A DNA stretch of 64,000 bases from positions 62,001-126,000 of IMG/VR virus record IMGVR_UViG_3300027708_000025. One strand, given 5' to 3'. The notes below the pieces were generated by a model. It saw nothing but the letters and a program-made list of their open reading frames with translations, had not been told where the DNA came from and made no database searches. Numbering within the stretch: position 1 is the first letter of the stretch; each line of letters begins with the position of its first letter. This stretch comes from a virus. A program made the translations under genes and the position numbers. This document shows positions 25,243 through 33,085 of the stretch, piece by piece.

Positions 25243-27737
25243 GTGAAAAAGTTCTCCAATGAAGAAACACGTTCTGTCTTCCAACCAATTGTGTTTACGA
25301 TTGTTTTTAATGGCTCAAGATATGCTTTATCAAACTGCGTATCGTAGTCGATATATTTTTCTACGCCAAACTCTTTTGGTAAGACTGTCAGAATAGAAAA
25401 TACATTTTCTTGAACGGGATTTGGAACTTTCATGTAACAGAATTTAGTCTTATCGCCATCCTGAATAAGCTGATACTTCTTAGTCAGTTTATACTTTTTC
25501 AGAAACGTATTAAACATTATCGCACCACGCACATGCATAGGTGTGCCTTTTGAATATAGTTCCGAACTGCTCATGTATTTAGATAGATCACTAACACCAC
25601 GTGGGAATGCAATGTCTTCGAATGGAAGAGTTTTGAATTCTTGTTTGAATGCTTCAACGAAAGATTGAAAGTCTGTTTCATTACCATTCATCACAATCTT
25701 CAGAGACTCTTTAATCTTATCTCTACATGACATTGGTGTGGAAGACTTGACAGCTTCGATGCCCATCATCTTTAGCTTTGGCTCTGCGAATCGAACACCT
25801 TCAGAATCATACACGTTTAGAATGTAACGCTTCTTTGCAGTCCAGATGCCTTTGTTGGCAATCACTTCACGTTTCATCTGCATCTTCTGGTCGAATGCAT
25901 TCATGTAGTCTGCTAGTTCTTGGTACGACTTGTCGATGAATGGTTCGAATTTTTCTGTACATGCTTTGTTGACGAAATCGACAATCGTTTCAACTTTCGT
26001 TTCACTCTTCGATCCATAGACCATATGTACCAGCGGACCAAGATTGACGTACACCGAGTCTGTATCTGACGCAATAACATAATCAATATCCTTAGTCTTC
26101 AATAGTTTGTTTAGATAACCATTCAACTTCATTTCAATCCATCGAATGGCTAGTTGACCAGACAGAGTAATTGCCTCTGCTTGGCGAATGTCAAAGAACC
26201 TAAAGTATTGATTACCAAGTGCGCCATAAGCGGAGTTCAATTGTACTTTCTTTGCGAGTTGTAAGTTCTTGTACTTTGAAATCTGATTTGTTATTTCACG
26301 TTTACGTTCTTTGTCTGTTTCTTTTTCGTAAGCCTTTTGAGCCTCAATCATTTTCTTTTTGTACAATGACCGATCATCATACATGCGTTGCATCATAGCA
26401 GGCAGAAAGCCTTGCTTGTCACGCTTGAAGTAATGCCCATTGGCTGCCATGCAATATTCACCCTGTGCTTGATATTCGCTGTTCAGCAAATTATCAATAG
26501 AGATACTTGTGTGGCGACCTTCAATAATTGTTTCAGGTGAAACATTGTACTGCATAATCAAGTGTGGATACAATGAGTTCAAGTCAAACGACACAACCCA
26601 TTCATGCATACCAACAATTGGATCTTTTACATAAGCGCCAGCATACTGTTCATCTTTTGGTGTACGAACATTCTGCGGAACAACAATCTTCTGTTCAATC
26701 AATTCATTATGAATCAAAGTATCCCACATGCGTACTTGCGTGAACACATCGGTGTAATTAACTTTAGCATCATATGCAAGTGCAAGTGCCATGTCAATCA
26801 ATTGCATCTTAGCATCAATACGATCCACAAGTTCAACGTCATGGATGTTATACTCAATAAACTTTTGAAAGTTTGTTCGGTACAACTGATGCAGACTTTC
26901 AACTTCAGAGTAGTCTAATTTCTTTTCACCAAGTTCAAGATACGCAATGTGATTAAGACTAAAACTTTCTTGTTGTGAGTATGTAAACTTCTTGTATAGT
27001 TCAATGTAATCAAGAATAGCAATACCCACCAAGTCAAATGCTACTTGCTGTTTGTTATGGATCGTAGTTGTACGTTCACCGATTCTACGAAATGGTGATA
27101 GACGTTTTGCAGTATTGTCGCCCATGAGTTTTGTGATACGATTGTTCAGATATGGAATATCAAAGAATTGAATGTTCCAACCAGTTACAATGTCTGGAGA
27201 TGTTTCTTCCCACATGTCAAGGAAGCGCATGATAAGATTATTCTCATCACGACACTTCATGTACGTTACGTCATCACGATTGGTTTCAAAGTCACCACAG
27301 CCAAACACATAGAAGTGTCCAGCTATCTTAAACGTGATTGCTGTAATTGGCTCAGTCGCAGACGCAGGTTCAGGAAAACCATTTTCAGAACCAACCTCAA
27401 TGTCAATATTTGCAATCTTAATTTGTTCTGGATCATAATCTACTTTACCAGGATACGCCTCATTGATATAAACGTAAGGGAAATTTGTTGAGCCATACAC
27501 TTTGAAGTTGTCAACGTCTTCATATCGTTTCATAAACTCAGTAGCATCACGCATGGTGCCTTGTGATACAGGCGCAACCGCTTGCCCGTCTAGTGTTTTA
27601 TAATCAGAGTCTTTACCACTAGCAGATACGTACAATACTGGATTGTATTCTATCTTATCATTGAATCTCTTGCCATTGTTATAACCACGAACAAGAATAT
27701 GATTTCCGAGTTTAGAGAAGTGTGTGTAAAATTTCAT
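25239..27737 (-). CDS. 43: Family B DNA polymerase (T4 gp43-like)
   Basis: An 832-residue replicative polymerase with 3'-5' proofreading. Exo I is D112-x-E114 (NIDIEVGSE), Exo II D193 (NIQFFDIPYL) and Exo III Y296-x-x-x-D300. The polymerase core has motif A D385-L-N-S-L-Y-P, motif B K497...NSAYG (501-505) and motif C with D558-T-D560. The C-terminus (LENFFT) is a clamp-binding peptide that should bind the gp45 ring. Length is close to T4 gp43 (898), slightly shorter. The 101-residue LSm-like gene directly precedes it. Confidence 0.98.
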   Translation of the reverse strand: MKFYTHFSKLGNHILVRGYNNGKRFNDKIEYNPVLYVSASGKDSDYKTLDGQAVAPVSQGTMRDATEFMKRYEDVDNFKVYGSTNFPYVYINEAYPGKVDYDPEQIKIANIDIEVGSENGFPEPASATEPITAITFKIAGHFYVFGCGDFETNRDDVTYMKCRDENNLIMRFLDMWEETSPDIVTGWNIQFFDIPYLNNRITKLMGDNTAKRLSPFRRIGERTTTIHNKQQVAFDLVGIAILDYIELYKKFTYSQQESFSLNHIAYLELGEKKLDYSEVESLHQLYRTNFQKFIEYNIHDVELVDRIDAKMQLIDMALALAYDAKVNYTDVFTQVRMWDTLIHNELIEQKIVVPQNVRTPKDEQYAGAYVKDPIVGMHEWVVSFDLNSLYPHLIMQYNVSPETIIEGRHTSISIDNLLNSEYQAQGEYCMAANGHYFKRDKQGFLPAMMQRMYDDRSLYKKKMIEAQKAYEKETDKERKREITNQISKYKNLQLAKKVQLNSAYGALGNQYFRFFDIRQAEAITLSGQLAIRWIEMKLNGYLNKLLKTKDIDYVIASDTDSVYVNLGPLVHMVYGSKSETKVETIVDFVNKACTEKFEPFIDKSYQELADYMNAFDQKMQMKREVIANKGIWTAKKRYILNVYDSEGVRFAEPKLKMMGIEAVKSSTPMSCRDKIKESLKIVMNGNETDFQSFVEAFKQEFKTLPFEDIAFPRGVSDLSKYMSSSELYSKGTPMHVRGAIMFNTFLKKYKLTKKYQLIQDGDKTKFCYMKVPNPVQENVFSILTVLPKEFGVEKYIDYDTQFDKAYLEPLKTIVNTIGWKTERVSSLENFFT

Positions 27738-28042
27738 TAAATAATAATAGATTGTGTCTTAGGCATAACTATACCTGAGCCGTATATCTCATTATACTTG
27801 TTTTCAATCTCGGGCGCAACTGTTACATCATAGATTACGTTGGCACGATTGATATCTACCTTCTTTTGTTCAGAGAAGATAAGCATAGGTTGCATTTGAA
27901 GACTTGCTTTGCCATTTGGTCCCATTGCAATTGCAAGTAAGCATGGGTTTTCAATTGAAAATATAGCACCATTACGTTCTGTAATGTTACCAACAATTTC
28001 TTCACCAGTGCTTAATTTTAAAATTCTAAGTTCATTTTGCAT
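27737..28042 (-). CDS. LSm-like small phage protein (paralogue 1)
   Basis: A 101-residue beta-rich protein with an N-terminal LSm-like pattern (RILKLSTGEEIVGNITER then IFSIENPCLLAIA, residues 6-40). A C-terminal part ends IEIV-like (VTVAPEIENKYNEIYGSG). It resembles the 132-residue protein at 46600-46998, which has KVLKLTNGDTLIGNVVEE followed by HRPMRVVVV, so the two appear to be paralogues. LSm folds usually bind RNA. Its stop touches the polymerase start (shared base at 27737), so it may be a polymerase-linked regulator. The fold is inferred from the pattern only. Confidence 0.72.
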   Translation of the reverse strand: MQNELRILKLSTGEEIVGNITERNGAIFSIENPCLLAIAMGPNGKASLQMQPMLIFSEQKKVDINRANVIYDVTVAPEIENKYNEIYGSGIVMPKTQSIII

Positions 28043-28059
28043 AATATATCTCCATAATT

Positions 28060-28086
28060 AAAAATGGGTGCCATTGCGGCACCCAT
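28060..28086 (-). terminator. Rho-independent terminator after the hsp20 micro-gene ladder
   Basis: ATGGGTGCC (28064-28072) and GGCACCCAT (28078-28086) form a perfect 9-bp stem with a 5-base loop. On the minus strand the stem runs into TTTTT then AATT. It lies 5 bases after the stop of the 21-residue micro-gene and ends the hsp20 transcript before the LSm-like/polymerase genes. Confidence 0.8.
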
Positions 28087-28090
28087 GGTG

Positions 28091-28156
28091 TTATTTAAAA
28101 CGCTCTGGGAAGTTTAAACGTTCCCACTCTTCATCGGATACTGGCCACCAGTTCAT
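28091..28156 (-). CDS. Micro-protein 3 of the hsp20 ladder, 21 aa
   Basis: A 21-residue frame (MNWWPVSDEEWERL then NFPERFK) whose ATG overlaps the stop of the 28-residue frame as ATGA. Three Trp and a balanced charge pattern make it non-random. It is the last of three stepwise-overlapping micro-genes and ends 5 bases before a strong terminator, so the ladder fits the transcript exactly. Function unknown. Confidence 0.6.
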   Translation of the reverse strand: MNWWPVSDEEWERLNFPERFK

Positions 28157-28239
28157 ATCCAACCTTTTAGATCAATAATTGGATGTACTTCCCAACCATC
28201 TCTCTTCCATCTTAGAAGCATTAGTAGCGCATCAATCAT
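28153..28239 (-). CDS. Micro-protein 2 of the hsp20 ladder, 28 aa
   Basis: A 28-residue frame (MIDALLMLLRWKRDGW then EVHPIIDLKGWI) starting in an ATGA overlap with the 53-residue gene and ending in an ATGA overlap with the 21-residue frame. The N-terminal half is an amphipathic hydrophobic helix. Coupled translation is the likely mode of expression because no separate Shine-Dalgarno is visible. Confidence 0.6.
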   Translation of the reverse strand: MIDALLMLLRWKRDGWEVHPIIDLKGWI

Positions 28240-28397
28240 AGCATACCTTTGCGTACTAATTCTTGCTGTTTGTTTTCCAAATCTTTATGGTCTACAGATT
28301 GCGATAGATAGTATTCAGCAAAACCTTTTGCTTTATAAGATTTTGCTTCTTGAATACCTTCAAGAATTGCCATGAAGAATTTTTTTACTGATTTCAT
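28236..28397 (-). CDS. Micro-protein 1 of the hsp20 ladder, 53 aa, DUF3563-like
   Basis: A 53-residue protein (MKSVKKFFMAILEGIQEA..., ending VRKGML) whose ATG overlaps the hsp20 stop as ATGA. The pattern FFMAILEGIQEAKSYKA then AEYYLSQSVDHKDLENK resembles DUF3563, a short bacterial protein family with the (L/Y)LSQS.DL..LE motif. It is probably coupled to Hsp20 and could be its partner. Function of the family is unknown. Confidence 0.75.
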   Translation of the reverse strand: MKSVKKFFMAILEGIQEAKSYKAKGFAEYYLSQSVDHKDLENKQQELVRKGML

Positions 28398-28897
28398 AAT
28401 ACATCATCCTCAGTTAAATATTCTTTAGAAGTTTTTTTAGTTTTAGATTCAGCATCCTTAACTTCAATCTTCTTTGGCTTCTTGTGTTCTGGAATGATTC
28501 GTTCCAAAGCAATCTTCAACATGCCATTAATCAAAGCGGCATCTTGAATTTCGATTTGGTCATCAAGTGCAAATGTGCGAGTGAATGCACGATTGGCGAT
28601 TCCTTTGAACAAGAAATTATCGTTATCGTCTTGTGTATTACCAGAAACAATAAGTTTATTGGCTTCTAATGTGATATCGATTTCTTGTTTACCAAAACCA
28701 GCAACAGCAATTTCAATGACATAAGTGTTGTCACCAGTCTTGCGAATGTTGTAAGGTGGGTAGTTTGGAATGTTTTTAGTTAAATCGTCATGCATCTTTG
28801 CCATGCGATTAAATTGGTCATCAAAGCCGACAAAGAATTTGTCAAAATCTTTAAAACCTGTTCCACCAAAGATAGTGGGTAATGGTGTGTGTCCCAT
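28394..28897 (-). CDS. Small heat-shock protein (Hsp20/IbpA-like)
   Basis: A 167-residue alpha-crystallin-type chaperone. The domain runs about residues 47-145 with the typical start PPYNIRKTGDNTYVIEIAVAGF and end INGMLKIALERIIPE, and is followed by a Lys-rich tail. It holds unfolded proteins from aggregating. It is under a TATAAATA late element (29055-29062) with a long structured leader, so it is probably used during head and tail assembly or host stress at lysis. T4-like cyanophages are also known to carry hsp20. It leads a ladder of three coupled micro-genes. Confidence 0.95.
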   Translation of the reverse strand: MGHTPLPTIFGGTGFKDFDKFFVGFDDQFNRMAKMHDDLTKNIPNYPPYNIRKTGDNTYVIEIAVAGFGKQEIDITLEANKLIVSGNTQDDNDNFLFKGIANRAFTRTFALDDQIEIQDAALINGMLKIALERIIPEHKKPKKIEVKDAESKTKKTSKEYLTEDDVL

Positions 28898-29321: not shown

Positions 29322-29349
29322 AAAAAGAATGCTAAGAATTATTTCTTAG
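29322..29349 (-). terminator. Terminator overlapping the 3' end of the secreted 74-residue gene
   Basis: GCTAAGAA and TTCTTAGC form an 8-bp stem with a 4-base loop around 29330-29349; on the minus strand the stem runs into ATTCTTTTTTATC. The stop codon of the 74-residue gene is inside the stem. It separates the sigma70-driven short gene from the winged-helix gene below. Confidence 0.65.
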
Positions 29350-29563
29350 CAGGTGTTTCAGCCTCTGTTTTTTTTGCGGCTTTCTCTTTTGGAGTAATCA
29401 CTTTAGGATGTGGTTTCTCTTTAGAGTCTGCTTTAGCGGCAGGTGCTGATGCTGTTGTTGCAGGTTTGTCAGCAGGTTTTGTTTCTGCTGGTTTGTCTGC
29501 CGCAACGGCAACTAGGGAGAGAGTAGTAAGTGCTACTGCTGTCAATACTTTAATGGATTTCAT
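29339..29563 (-). CDS. Secreted Ala/Lys/Pro-rich protein, 74 aa
   Basis: I chose the ATG at 29563: TTAGGAGATTCT precedes it and it yields a clean signal peptide (MKSIKVLTAVALTTLSLVAVA, about 21 residues). The mature part is low-complexity (ADKPAETKPADKPATT, then KEKPHPKVITPKEKAAKK), probably disordered and strongly basic. It may coat or bind nucleic acid or envelope material in the periplasm. It has its own strong sigma70-like promoter and palindromic operator candidate, so it is probably made early. No family recognised. Confidence 0.78.
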   Translation of the reverse strand: MKSIKVLTAVALTTLSLVAVAADKPAETKPADKPATTASAPAAKADSKEKPHPKVITPKEKAAKKTEAETPAKK

Positions 29564-29582
29564 AGAATCTCCTAATTTGTTT

Positions 29583-29600
29583 TGAGATAACATTATCTCA
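29583..29600. promoter_or_regulatory. Palindromic operator candidate over the -10 box
   Basis: TGAGATAA-CA-TTATCTCA is an 8-bp inverted repeat with a 2-base centre covering the -10 element of the sigma70-like promoter. A homodimeric repressor binding here would block the promoter. No cognate regulator is identifiable, though the winged-helix protein at 29068-29295 is a nearby candidate. Confidence 0.55.
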
Positions 29601-29620
29601 TAATATATAACGTTTGTCAA
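29592..29620 (-). promoter_or_regulatory. Sigma70-like early promoter of the secreted 74-residue gene
   Basis: On the minus strand TTGACA (29615-29620) and GATAAT (29592-29597) are 17 bases apart. It starts inside the last codons of the dps gene and drives the short secreted gene. Confidence 0.82.
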
Positions 29621-30054
29621 GCCTTTAAGGTTGACCTAATCATCCATGCGTGTTTACCAAATGCATCTTGGCGATCAGCCATAAAATTACTTATGTTGTG
29701 TGCATGATTTTGTTCGGCAAGTTCGTATGCACGTTCAATGCTTGCTAACATTACTGGAATGTCTTCTGATAATCTTTGTAACATTACTTCTGCTGGTGAC
29801 ACAGTTTCATCACCTTGAATTTGTGATAACTGAATAAATCGATTAAAACTTCCTGGTGCATATGAATCCAATGAACGAATTTCTTCTGCAATTTTATCCA
29901 CAACGCCGTAAACTTCAGTATAAATGTTTTCTAAGAATTCGTGATACTGAGGAAAGTTAGGACCAGTTATGTTCCAATGATAGTAATGTGCCTTCAAATA
30001 AAATGCGTAATGATTTGCCAAAACTACTTTTAATGATTGTACTAGTTCTTCCAT
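29617..30054 (-). CDS. dps: Dps-like DNA-protection/ferritin-like protein
   Basis: A 145-residue four-helix ferritin-like protein. The ferroxidase and DNA-protection signature is visible: HYYHWNITGPNFPQYHEF with H26 and H38, and D53 and E57 in VVDKIAEEIRSLD. Length is typical for compact Dps. These proteins form dodecamers that oxidise Fe(II), store iron and bind DNA. In a phage it could protect DNA from Fenton damage or store iron for the reductase and Fe-S proteins in this window (inference). It is coupled to RegA upstream. Confidence 0.92.
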   Translation of the reverse strand: MEELVQSLKVVLANHYAFYLKAHYYHWNITGPNFPQYHEFLENIYTEVYGVVDKIAEEIRSLDSYAPGSFNRFIQLSQIQGDETVSPAEVMLQRLSEDIPVMLASIERAYELAEQNHAHNISNFMADRQDAFGKHAWMIRSTLKA

Positions 30055-30468
30055 TTAATTTTCTTCCCTCTTTTTGCTTCCGATGTTATACTTTGCTGTT
30101 AATAACCATTCATCTTTTTCTTTATATGAAATAATTTTAATCTGTGATAAAGGTGCAATTGGTTGTTCGGTATCTGTTGCTTTAGGAACAATTTCAATCA
30201 GTCCCCATTCAGCTAATAGTTTACCTATCGTATTACGTCTTGCTAAATCGTTTTCTTCAAAGTCAGTTGGTTTGCCATCTAATGCAAATAACTCTTTAAA
30301 ATGTACAATATAATATTTTCCTTTTTTATGTAAAATATGACACGATTGATATAGAGTTTTATCTTTTCTAGATGCTACACCTATTCTTGTCAATGTTTCT
30401 TTTACCTTAAGAAAATCATCATCTTGCTTTAATCTTACTTCAAGTAAGTCTTCAATGTTCACCGCCAT
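30055..30468 (-). CDS. regA: RegA translational repressor
   Basis: A 137-residue homologue of T4 RegA: the block FLKVKETLTRIGVASRKDKTLYQSC and HILHKKGKYYIVHFKELF is nearly the T4 sequence, as is WGLIEIVP. RegA binds the ribosome-binding sites of early phage mRNAs and blocks their translation when early proteins are abundant. Relative to T4 it has a longer N-terminus (MAVNIEDLLEV) and a Lys-rich tail. Position after gp62 in the 44-62-regA order is as in T4. Confidence 0.95.
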   Translation of the reverse strand: MAVNIEDLLEVRLKQDDDFLKVKETLTRIGVASRKDKTLYQSCHILHKKGKYYIVHFKELFALDGKPTDFEENDLARRNTIGKLLAEWGLIEIVPKATDTEQPIAPLSQIKIISYKEKDEWLLTAKYNIGSKKREEN

Positions 30469-30871
30469 TCTTTTTCTCCTTAGACTTCAATCCACCTTTT
30501 TCTAGTTTTTGTCGCATGATTTTAAGTTGATCGGAGGTTATGAGATTCTGTACTTGTTTAGCTTTAGCATAACTATAGCCAAAATATTCTGAAATCACAT
30601 TAATGTCCTCAACTATTTCATTCTTAAACCATTTGCTGAACCTTTTTCGTGGTCTGATGGTATTTAGTAAATAGAGAAACTGAGGTTTGTTGTCTAAGAG
30701 ATGACGGCTGTTCATCTCATTTGCATATAAGATTGTGTCTGAAAAGTAAGATAGTCCTTTATTAACGATGTACGCATTGTACGATTTTTCGGATAAGTCA
30801 TCATTGTCAGTACCAACCATCATGTTTTCTTTTGATTGGTTGATAGCGTTTAAATAGTCAAATGGTGTCAT
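30452..30871 (-). CDS. 62: Clamp loader small subunit (T4 gp62-like)
   Basis: A 139-residue protein. The block SYFSDTILYANEMNSRHLLDNKPQ and RKRFSKWFKNE matches the gp62 family that completes the gp44/62 clamp loader. It bridges the gp44 ATPase ring and gp45. Shorter than T4 gp62 (187). It overlaps regA by 17 bases and gp44 by 4 bases, in the canonical T4 order 44-62-regA-43. Confidence 0.92.
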   Translation of the reverse strand: MTPFDYLNAINQSKENMMVGTDNDDLSEKSYNAYIVNKGLSYFSDTILYANEMNSRHLLDNKPQFLYLLNTIRPRKRFSKWFKNEIVEDINVISEYFGYSYAKAKQVQNLITSDQLKIMRQKLEKGGLKSKEKKNGGEH

Positions 30872-31806
30872 TTGAATTCACAGTCAACCATTACTTCGGT
30901 TAAGAAAGCGACAAAGTTGATTTCTTGGTCAACGACAAATGCAGACTTGTATTGATAGTCAGCAAGCAATAGAACCATACGTGGAATAGAATCGGGTTTC
31001 AAACATTCGTTGCTATTGTCAAAGATTCGTTTGAATAATACTGATGGTTCATTGTCTAGATTTTCTGCAACCCACTTACGCATACCCGTGAAGTCTTTTG
31101 CTTTCAATCTTTCAACCAATGTCTTGAAATTGTCACTTGAGATATTTGCAAGAATTCCAGTATCAATCTTACCCGTAGCAGAGTAACGTTGCAGTTCATT
31201 GAGAACACGCCTCCAATCAGGAAAGTGTTTCATAATAAGTTCAGCAACAACTTTTTCTTCAAACTCTACATTTTCTTTTTGCAGAATGCCAGTCATGCGT
31301 TTCATAAAACGACCAGCAAGTTTTGGCTTGTCTGCGGCGTTTATCTTAAATTGTACAACAGAGCACCGGCTATGAAGTGGGGCGATGATACGATTAAGAA
31401 AGTTGCAAGTAAGGATAAAACCACAGTTAGCAGAAAACTCTTCCATGAAGTTCCTGAGTGCGGGTTGAGTAGATTGAGGGTTAAGGTAATCAGCCTCATC
31501 AAGTATGACATATTTTCTTCCACCAGAGAATGATACAGTTGATGCAAAGTTTTTAATTTCATTGCGTAGCGTATCAATGTTGCCGTTCATTGATCCATTG
31601 ATAACAATATAATTACATCCAAGTTCTTCAAGCATAGCCTTTGCGATAGTAGTTTTACCTACACCAGGACCGCCTGTAAGAATTAGATTGGGTACGTTCT
31701 TTTGCTCAACGAATTGTTGGAACGTAGCCTTTAAGTCTGCTGGAAGAATTGTGTCTTCAACAGTTTTTGGTCGATACTTCTCGACCCACAAAAAATCTTG
31801 TAGCAT
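30868..31806 (-). CDS. 44: Clamp loader ATPase (T4 gp44-like)
   Basis: A 312-residue AAA+ clamp-loader subunit. Walker A GGPGVGKTT (45-53), Walker B I-L-D103-E104-A105-D106, and the clamp-loader SRC motif (HSRCSVVQF) are all visible. Four copies with one gp62 open the gp45 ring and load it on primed DNA. A promoter and a 9-bp inverted repeat lie immediately upstream. Confidence 0.96.
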   Translation of the reverse strand: MLQDFLWVEKYRPKTVEDTILPADLKATFQQFVEQKNVPNLILTGGPGVGKTTIAKAMLEELGCNYIVINGSMNGNIDTLRNEIKNFASTVSFSGGRKYVILDEADYLNPQSTQPALRNFMEEFSANCGFILTCNFLNRIIAPLHSRCSVVQFKINAADKPKLAGRFMKRMTGILQKENVEFEEKVVAELIMKHFPDWRRVLNELQRYSATGKIDTGILANISSDNFKTLVERLKAKDFTGMRKWVAENLDNEPSVLFKRIFDNSNECLKPDSIPRMVLLLADYQYKSAFVVDQEINFVAFLTEVMVDCEFK

Positions 31807-32139: not shown

Positions 32140-32811
32140 TTAACCTTCGTACTTAGAGCCAGCTTCAGTAGCAATCCAATATTCAATTTGGTCAGTCGCA
32201 TGTTTGAAATGCGAAATGCCTTTAGATGAAATAGATACATCATATGTACCTGGAACCATCTTAAGATTTTCTGTATTGAAAATCATTTTGAAATTAGATG
32301 TAGTCTCACCAACTTTAATTGAGAAGTTGTCAGACTCATCATTCTTAACATCTAGTGCAGAGATAGAGATTTCAGTACCATCACCAACAACAGCAATGTT
32401 TGGAAGACCCAAGATACCAGACAACTTCAATACTTGATTCATATCGTCTTTTGTCAGTTTGAAATTCACTTCGGAGTTTTCAACCTTGATCTCTTTTGCT
32501 GGTGGTGCAACAATCATAGATTCATCAGCAAGTCCGTATGTAGTTTTAGATGTGCCAGATTTAACTGTAAGATTATTTGCATCAGTATTGATAACAATTT
32601 CTGGATCAGTTAAAGAACTGCAAAGAGAAAGGAATCGATTCAAGTCATAAATGACAAAATCTTTTTCAAATGTTTCTGTTACAGTTGCTTTGCCTAGTAC
32701 GTTCTGTCCTTTGGAGATAGTTCGCACTACAGAGCCTTCTTTGAATTGCATACCAGCATTAATGGTTGCAAAGTTTTTGAGAACGTTAATTGTTGATTCG
32801 CTTAATTTCAT
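32140..32811 (-). CDS. 45: Sliding clamp (T4 gp45-like)
   Basis: A 223-residue clamp; I chose the ATG at 32811 (MKLSES) because AAGGA lies ahead of it and it aligns with the T4 start MKLSKDT. The segments LKNFATINAGMQFKEG, VIYDLNRFLSL and NLKMVPGTYDVSI match T4 gp45. It encircles DNA to hold the polymerase, and in T4 also activates gp55-dependent late transcription. Its position upstream of gp44 and gp62 is the T4 order. Confidence 0.95.
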   Translation of the reverse strand: MKLSESTINVLKNFATINAGMQFKEGSVVRTISKGQNVLGKATVTETFEKDFVIYDLNRFLSLCSSLTDPEIVINTDANNLTVKSGTSKTTYGLADESMIVAPPAKEIKVENSEVNFKLTKDDMNQVLKLSGILGLPNIAVVGDGTEISISALDVKNDESDNFSIKVGETTSNFKMIFNTENLKMVPGTYDVSISSKGISHFKHATDQIEYWIATEAGSKYEG

Positions 32812-33085
32812 TTTGTTTTCCTTCATTCAAGTCGTGTACGTGTAGCATGATTATAGCATAGTGTAAAATTTTTAGCAAGTCTTTACGATTTCGTCCGTCT
32901 TTCTTGCCATATCTTTGTGCATATTTCAGCACATTCCCAATACAGAATCCTTCACCATGTCCACCATCAATGATGAATTCTGTTGCTTGAAATTTGTCAC
33001 GGGAATAATGTTGCCCGTATGTTGAGTCAATGTAAGACTTCAATTCTGTTAAAGTCTTATCTTCATTGTATCGATAATCCGTCAT
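32786..33085 (-). CDS. DUF3310-like protein (nucleotide-kinase/gp1.7-like family)
   Basis: A 99-residue protein with the motif GFCIGNVLKYAQRYGKKDGRN then DLLKILHYAIIM, the DUF3310 pattern (C-x-G-N-x-x-K-Y...RYG) found in many phages. Some members are linked to T7 gp1.7-type nucleotide metabolism; the role here is not established. It ends inside the gp45 start region (26-base overlap) and its start overlaps the glycosyltransferase stop by 4 bases, so it is coupled to both. Confidence 0.78.
   Translation of the reverse strand: MTDYRYNEDKTLTELKSYIDSTYGQHYSRDKFQATEFIIDGGHGEGFCIGNVLKYAQRYGKKDGRNRKDLLKILHYAIIMLHVHDLNEGKQNEIKRINN

What the first reader, a model, noticed from the sequence alone, without database searches (positions are those of the whole stretch)
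28091..28397. Ladder of three overlapping micro-genes (53, 28 and 21 codons) behind hsp20
hsp20, the 53-residue DUF3563-like gene, the 28-residue frame and the 21-residue frame are joined by four-base ATGA overlaps at every junction. The last stop lies 5 bases before a strong terminator. Such exact tiling over 300 bases is unlikely by chance. The set could be chaperone partners or small membrane-active peptides expressed only by translational coupling.
Basis: seen in the sequence. Interest (0 to 1): 0.62.

Follow-up and report, generated by a model that had tools for sequence, protein, structure and literature searches.

The report
Modular phage microprotein ladder behind hsp20
Three tiny, overlapping virus genes that look like leftovers are real: they belong to a recurring set of four-plus microprotein families, down to 21 amino acids, that many uncultured aquatic phages carry in the same head-to-tail arrangement, and what they do is unknown.

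Summary
On the minus strand, hsp20 (28897-28394) is followed by ORFs of 53, 28 and 21 codons joined by exact ATGA overlaps, with a strong terminator 4 bases after the last stop. All three frames evolve as proteins: pN/pS 0.26, 0.13 and 0.05; shifted frames give about 0.8-3.3.

The main result goes beyond the finding. The genes are one version of a modular set: alpha (DUF3563-like), beta (amphipathic 27-mer), gamma (GWEVHP 28-32-mer) and delta (WWPVSDEEWERLN 21-mer). Related loci give about 150 distinct arrays; 110 of 148 adjacent module pairs share a 4-base overlap. Arrays lie behind hsp20 in T4-like phages and elsewhere in 230-525 kb phages and other contigs. Alpha+beta and gamma+delta occur fused or split. 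Gamma and delta match no Pfam, PHROGs or PDB family; no isolate phage matched, and delta is almost absent from 84,980 species genomes.

Most likely they are co-translated subunits of one small accessory complex, probably at the inner membrane surface. Coding and coupling anatomy are shown; joint action and membrane role are inferred. The Hsp20-partner idea is untested; "expressed only by coupling" is not supported.

The parts
28394..28897 (-). hsp20, head gene of the coupled series (167 aa)
   Evidence: Pfam HSP20 3.6e-16, phrog_432 3.8e-43
28236..28397 (-). ORF1, 53 aa: beta module (residues 1-26) fused to alpha module (DUF3563-like, 27-53)
   Evidence: pN/pS 0.26, 0/2000 shuffles; DUF3563 13.1 bits; AlphaFold2 pLDDT 82, helices 2-32 and 37-49
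28153..28239 (-). ORF2, 28 aa: gamma module (GWEVHP family)
   Evidence: pN/pS 0.13; 98 relatives in viral contigs with the wider family profile
28091..28156 (-). ORF3, 21 aa: delta module (WWPVSDEEWERLN family); alternative TTG start at 28162
   Evidence: pN/pS 0.05; 395 relatives in viral contigs
28394..28397 (-). ATGA junction hsp20/ORF1
   Evidence: sequence
28236..28239 (-). ATGA junction ORF1/ORF2
   Evidence: sequence
28153..28156 (-). ATGA junction ORF2/ORF3
   Evidence: sequence
28408..28411 (-). GAGG, Shine-Dalgarno-like site of ORF1
28246..28250 (-). AAAGG, Shine-Dalgarno-like site of ORF2, inside the last codons of ORF1
28163..28167 (-). AAAGG, Shine-Dalgarno-like site of ORF3, inside the last codons of ORF2
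28064..28086 (-). intrinsic terminator stem-loop followed by a T run
   Evidence: 10 pairs, 6 G-C
27737..28042 (-). 101-aa gene downstream (phrog_527), conserved neighbour
   Evidence: phrog_527 7.4e-15; follows the ladder in most hsp20 loci
29339..29620 (-). exported A/K/P-rich protein upstream, recurring partner of ladders
   Evidence: 51 of 133 distinct ladders, 0 on the opposite strand

Best explanation
The three ORFs are genuine protein genes and one local version of a modular microprotein cassette. The cassette combines an alpha module (DUF3563-like helices, membrane-anchored in some clades), a beta module (27-residue basic amphipathic helix), a gamma module (about 30 residues, GWEVHP) and a delta module (about 21 residues, WWPVSDEEWERLN). 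In the window beta and alpha are fused as ORF1. SHOWN: evolution as translated proteins, ATGA overlaps with a Shine-Dalgarno-like site for each cistron, recurrence in several phage types, fusions and splits of modules, optional presence. INFERRED: ribosomes finishing hsp20 re-initiate at each step, giving matched amounts of small subunits (about 0.85). The microproteins act together in one small complex, because the same modules stay neighbours in changing order and are fused pairwise in some phages (about 0.65). The complex sits at the cytoplasmic face of the inner membrane as an accessory host-directed device, for example superinfection exclusion or binding of a host membrane protein (about 0.35). 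The locus lies between the sliding-clamp/clamp-loader genes and DNA polymerase, so early expression with replication genes is likely (inferred).
For: Coding: pN/pS 0.26/0.13/0.05 on loci chosen only by hsp20 similarity; shifted-frame controls 0.84-3.27; 0/2000 column shuffles. Coupling: 110 of 148 distinct module junctions exactly -4; Shine-Dalgarno-like sites in 74% against 22% of shuffles. In L031 and L052 the gamma C-terminus is 8 residues shorter, yet the new stop recreates ATGA with GGAGG in front. Set: alpha~beta~gamma~delta (four arrays with delta-W, eight with delta-Q) behind an unrelated gene in L107, L133, L149, L247 and others. Fusions: beta+alpha in the window clade, gamma+delta in L094 and L110 on two different contigs. 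Membrane: transmembrane alpha N-termini (Kyte-Doolittle about 2.4), transmembrane epsilon microproteins, amphipathic beta with net charge +4. Island: exported A/K/P-rich gene upstream in 51 of 133 arrays. [quoted passage not shown]
Against: No expression or binding data. In the window's own ladder no transmembrane segment is predicted, and delta has no membrane feature. Many arrays lack one or more modules, and delta alone follows hsp20 in several phages, so an obligate four-part complex is unlikely. Most close relatives keep only beta. The -4 spacing is the commonest among prokaryotic gene neighbours in general (PMC12548453), so coupling alone does not prove joint function. Loci were fetched by hsp20, delta, gamma and ORF1 similarity, so the array counts are not an unbiased survey.
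Confidence: 0.55

Rival explanations
1. The microproteins are partners or regulators of the phage Hsp20: they bind the small heat shock protein and tune its assembly or clients, and coupling keeps their ratio to Hsp20 fixed.
For: In 79 of 144 distinct arrays modules follow hsp20, and delta alone follows it by a 4-base or short overlap in several phages (L083, L097, L099, L102, L150). Of 34 longer contigs with modules, 29 hold an Hsp20.
Against: The same arrays lie away from hsp20 in phages of 230-525 kb and in other contigs. Hsp20 is common in this phage group without special meaning (PMC7674155). Loci L001-L080 were chosen by hsp20, which inflates the link.
Confidence: 0.2
2. Independent small accessory genes that share a hot spot: each microprotein has its own host target, and they sit together only because this place between early genes tolerates insertion and closely spaced genes easily reach the -4 arrangement.
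For: Modules are lost and replaced one by one; -4 spacing is common everywhere (PMC12548453).
Against: The same partners re-associate in the same coupled order in different genomic places and phage types, and they fuse with each other (L094, L110, ORF1), which a passive hot spot does not predict.
Confidence: 0.25
3. ORF2 and ORF3 are non-functional remains or chance frames downstream of ORF1.
For: Very short; most close relatives lack them.
Against: Strong codon-level constraint in these frames only; hundreds of relatives of the 21-residue protein in many contexts.
Confidence: 0.02

Closest known systems
DUF3563 (PF12086), small bacterial proteins of unknown function
   Same: Size, helical make-up, and the YLxxSVDxxDLExRxxxL core of the alpha module; an hsp20-adjacent homologue in L079 reaches the curated cut-off (27.0 vs 26.9 bits).
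   Different: The window protein scores only 13.1 bits; phage versions are fused to beta or sit in ATGA-coupled arrays with gamma and delta, which belong to no named family.
Small DUF1127 proteins (YjiS, CcaF1)
   Same: Helical proteins, often under 50 residues, that can act through binding to other proteins (PMC12501420).
   Different: No DUF1127 match to the modules scanned; an analogy of working mode only.
hsp20 loci of cyanophages, Pelagibacter phages and pmoC phages
   Same: hsp20 near replication genes in T4-like phages (PMC7674155).
   Different: No homologous microprotein ladder behind hsp20 in the three isolate phages examined; HTVC115P has a coupled series there with unrelated sequences.
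Phage small-protein gene clusters in general
   Same: Small genes with host-directed roles (reviewed in PMC11323111).
   Different: Here the same four to five microprotein families recur together across phage types, with fusions, swaps and losses.

Membership tests
DUF3563 (PF12086) | Score at or above the curated cut-off of 26.9 bits | tested here: not met
   Window ORF1 13.1 bits; 7 of 32 alpha members match at E<=0.1 and one, from L079, scores 27.0 bits. Called DUF3563-like, not a member.
DUF3563 (PF12086) | Short helical protein with a YLxxxxDxxDLExRxxxL core | tested here: met
   Alignment A10; AlphaFold2 helices 2-32 and 37-49, pLDDT 82.
DUF1127 | Match to the DUF1127 profile | tested here: not met
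   No DUF1127 match for the alpha, beta-prime or basic-helix forms scanned at E<=1.
Translationally coupled gene series | Start/stop overlap kept among relatives, with a ribosome-binding site | tested here: met
   110 of 148 junctions at -4; Shine-Dalgarno-like 74% vs 22%; rebuilt ATGA in L031 and L052.
Translationally coupled gene series | Downstream yield depends on upstream translation | not testable with these tools
   Needs a reporter assay or ribosome profiling.
Phasin (the helical gene next to many ladders) | Match to a phasin profile | tested here: not met
   No phasin family among Pfam matches of 13 members at E<=0.1; 'phasin-like' is only a label here.

The most novel reading that the evidence does not exclude
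A previously undescribed modular microprotein machine: four to five families of about 20-65 residues, translated as a coupled ladder, assemble into one complex that T4-like, 230-525 kb and other aquatic phages share, mix and fuse as modules to act on the host envelope during early infection.
Probability: 0.35. Interest if true: 0.85.

Novelty: new variant of a known kind. Interest (0 to 1): 0.62.

Why it matters
Two of the families (gamma and delta) have no name in Pfam or PHROGs, and delta holds its core almost unchanged while synonymous sites vary widely, so a 21-residue protein is under very strong constraint. Genes this small are easily missed by gene finders. The natural fusions and swaps give ready-made hypotheses about which microproteins touch each other, so their function becomes directly testable with synthetic peptides or two-hybrid assays. 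If they form one complex, it would be an unusually small multi-subunit device.

Tried and rejected
Chance ORFs: rejected by codon tests and recurrence. Regex-selected delta and gamma sets were discarded as biased, because the search pattern itself enforces conservation; the test was redone on loci chosen by hsp20 only. Relatives among isolate phages: one DNA query and several microprotein tblastn queries found nothing significant; the Microcystis phage hit has E=10 and lies inside a larger ORF. Short queries limit that sensitivity, and the query was a hand-made consensus. Phasin identity of the helical neighbour gene: not supported by Pfam. Methanotroph host via pmoC: no match in 42 records, but the control genomes were silent too, so uninformative. 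'Two ladders in one genome' on the 524-kb contig (L244, L251): not claimed, because the mirrored layout with two hsp20 genes suggests a joined or duplicated assembly. Fold of the gamma-delta fusion: pLDDT 60, not used. Fold search with the ORF1 model: not run, since a two-helix protein gives unspecific matches. PDB sequence searches: no meaningful match.

Full report
What is there. The window is positions 62001-126000 of a 150,107-base virus record that holds a T4-type major capsid protein. On the minus strand, downstream of the sliding clamp (32140-32826) and clamp-loader (30868-31806) genes, lies hsp20 (28897-28394). It is followed by ORFs of 53, 28 and 21 codons, a terminator, a 101-aa phrog_527 gene and DNA polymerase.

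Is it more than chance? Given the first ATG, 7 of 20,000 dinucleotide shuffles give a chain of three. Stronger evidence comes from relatives. Eighty loci with related hsp20 genes were fetched. Eight of them carry the ladder or most of it in the window's form (L001, identical to the window, L005, L031, L032, L034, L037, L042, L052). On these loci, chosen only by hsp20, pN/pS is 0.26 for ORF1, 0.13 for ORF2 and 0.05 for ORF3. Shifted frames give 0.84-3.27, and none of 2000 column shuffles reaches the observed share of synonymous changes. All three therefore evolve as translated proteins.

The coupling itself is kept. In L031 and L052 the second gene ends 8 residues early, yet its new stop again overlaps the next start as ATGA with GGAGG upstream. 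In L032 and L034 the second gene is gone and the third starts 1 base after the stop of the first. Most other close relatives carry a single intact 27-codon gene that resembles the first half of ORF1 and is itself under purifying selection (pN/pS 0.27). The array is therefore optional but not decayed. The direction of change (loss of the array or gain of it) was not resolved.

The wider finding. A search with the 21-residue family gave 395 relatives in viral contigs, and a search with the wider 28-32-residue family gave 98. Reading the neighbourhoods showed that the same pieces recur as modules: alpha (DUF3563-like, or LExYIxxxNPQxxxDVERLxREF), beta (27-residue basic helix) or beta-prime (FGQARAAASLARxG), gamma (GWEVHP), delta (WWPVSDEEWERLN, or an alternative MNQWQPMTDEDWEW), and in some a transmembrane epsilon. 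Whether the two alpha forms are homologous was not proven. A profile census gives 150 distinct arrays, single modules included. Among them are eight alpha~beta~gamma~deltaQ, four alpha~beta~gamma~deltaW, nine alpha~beta-prime~gamma, six of the window type, five delta~beta, and two gamma+delta fusions. Of 148 distinct module junctions 110 are exactly -4 and three are -1; Shine-Dalgarno-like sites precede 74% of the overlapping starts against 22% after shuffling.

Context. Of 144 distinct arrays, 79 follow hsp20, 20 follow a small helical gene (labelled phasin-like, an identity that Pfam does not support), and 45 lie elsewhere. The phage types differ: 14 of 34 contigs have the T4-type capsid family, including contigs of 233-525 kb; in the other 20 none was found, though they may be fragments. 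Hsp20 is found in 29 of 34, but it is common in this group (PMC7674155), so this does not single out a chaperone role. An exported A/K/P-rich gene lies upstream in 51 of 133 arrays and never on the opposite strand, which suggests one functional island.

Mechanism. Shown: coding, coupling anatomy, modularity, fusions, optional presence. Inferred: ribosomes pass from gene to gene by termination-reinitiation, giving balanced amounts; the products act together, since proteins that are fused in one phage and separate in another often interact, and coupled pairs often encode subunits of complexes (title of PMC10666635, as cited in PMC12548453). A membrane-surface site is suggested by transmembrane alpha N-termini and epsilon proteins in sister arrays and by the amphipathic beta helix. 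AlphaFold2 gives ORF1 a long helix (2-32) and a short one (37-49) at pLDDT 82. The membrane step is the weakest, because the window's own array has no transmembrane segment and delta is not amphipathic.

Known or new. The alpha module is related to DUF3563, a term found in no paper of the held library. One hsp20-adjacent homologue reaches the Pfam cut-off and the window protein does not. Gamma and delta have no significant Pfam, PHROGs or PDB match. No isolate phage record matched, within the limits of tblastn on short queries. Delta is nearly absent from 84,980 bacterial and archaeal species genomes. The one credible hit is a contig with phage genes (L233) binned with an Alteromonadales genome, with the order hsp20 - small gene - alpha - delta - phrog_527-like gene - DNA polymerase, the same neighbourhood as in the window. 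Overlapping small phage genes are a known kind; this recurring, modular set of microprotein families appears to be undescribed.

Noticed in passing
window 29339-29620 (-): Exported A/K/P-rich protein recurs upstream of ladders in three different contexts, at about 1170, 500 and 260 bases, always on the same strand.
   Followed up: partly
L149 1788-2123, L109 2643-2924; directly upstream of hsp20 in many relatives but not in the window: Small helical protein (IDAxQ..FIDAQTxFAK) that accompanies ladders; looks phasin-like by eye, but there is no Pfam phasin match.
   Followed up: partly
L149 2615-2890, L109 2950-3225: Conserved gene of about 90 aa (PEVKFNKNGYEIRTDILxMAKD) follows many ladders; no match in isolate phages by tblastn.
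   Followed up: partly
window 27737-28042 (-): phrog_527 gene that looks Sm/LSm-like by eye sits between the ladder and DNA polymerase; relatives in 208 phage records, mostly cyanophages and Stenotrophomonas phages.
   Followed up: no
L244 and L251 (same 524,565-base contig): Two ladders and two hsp20 genes in mirrored positions; possibly a joined or duplicated assembly.
   Followed up: no
L312 2850-3363 (Pelagibacter phage HTVC115P): Another ATGA-coupled series of small genes behind hsp20, with unrelated sequences ending in KGGKVSK and one transmembrane-like protein.
   Followed up: no
window 29617-30054 and 30055-30468 (-): A ferritin/Dps-like gene (Pfam Ferritin) and a gene that resembles T4 RegA by eye (not tested) lie in the replication cluster next to hsp20.
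   Followed up: no
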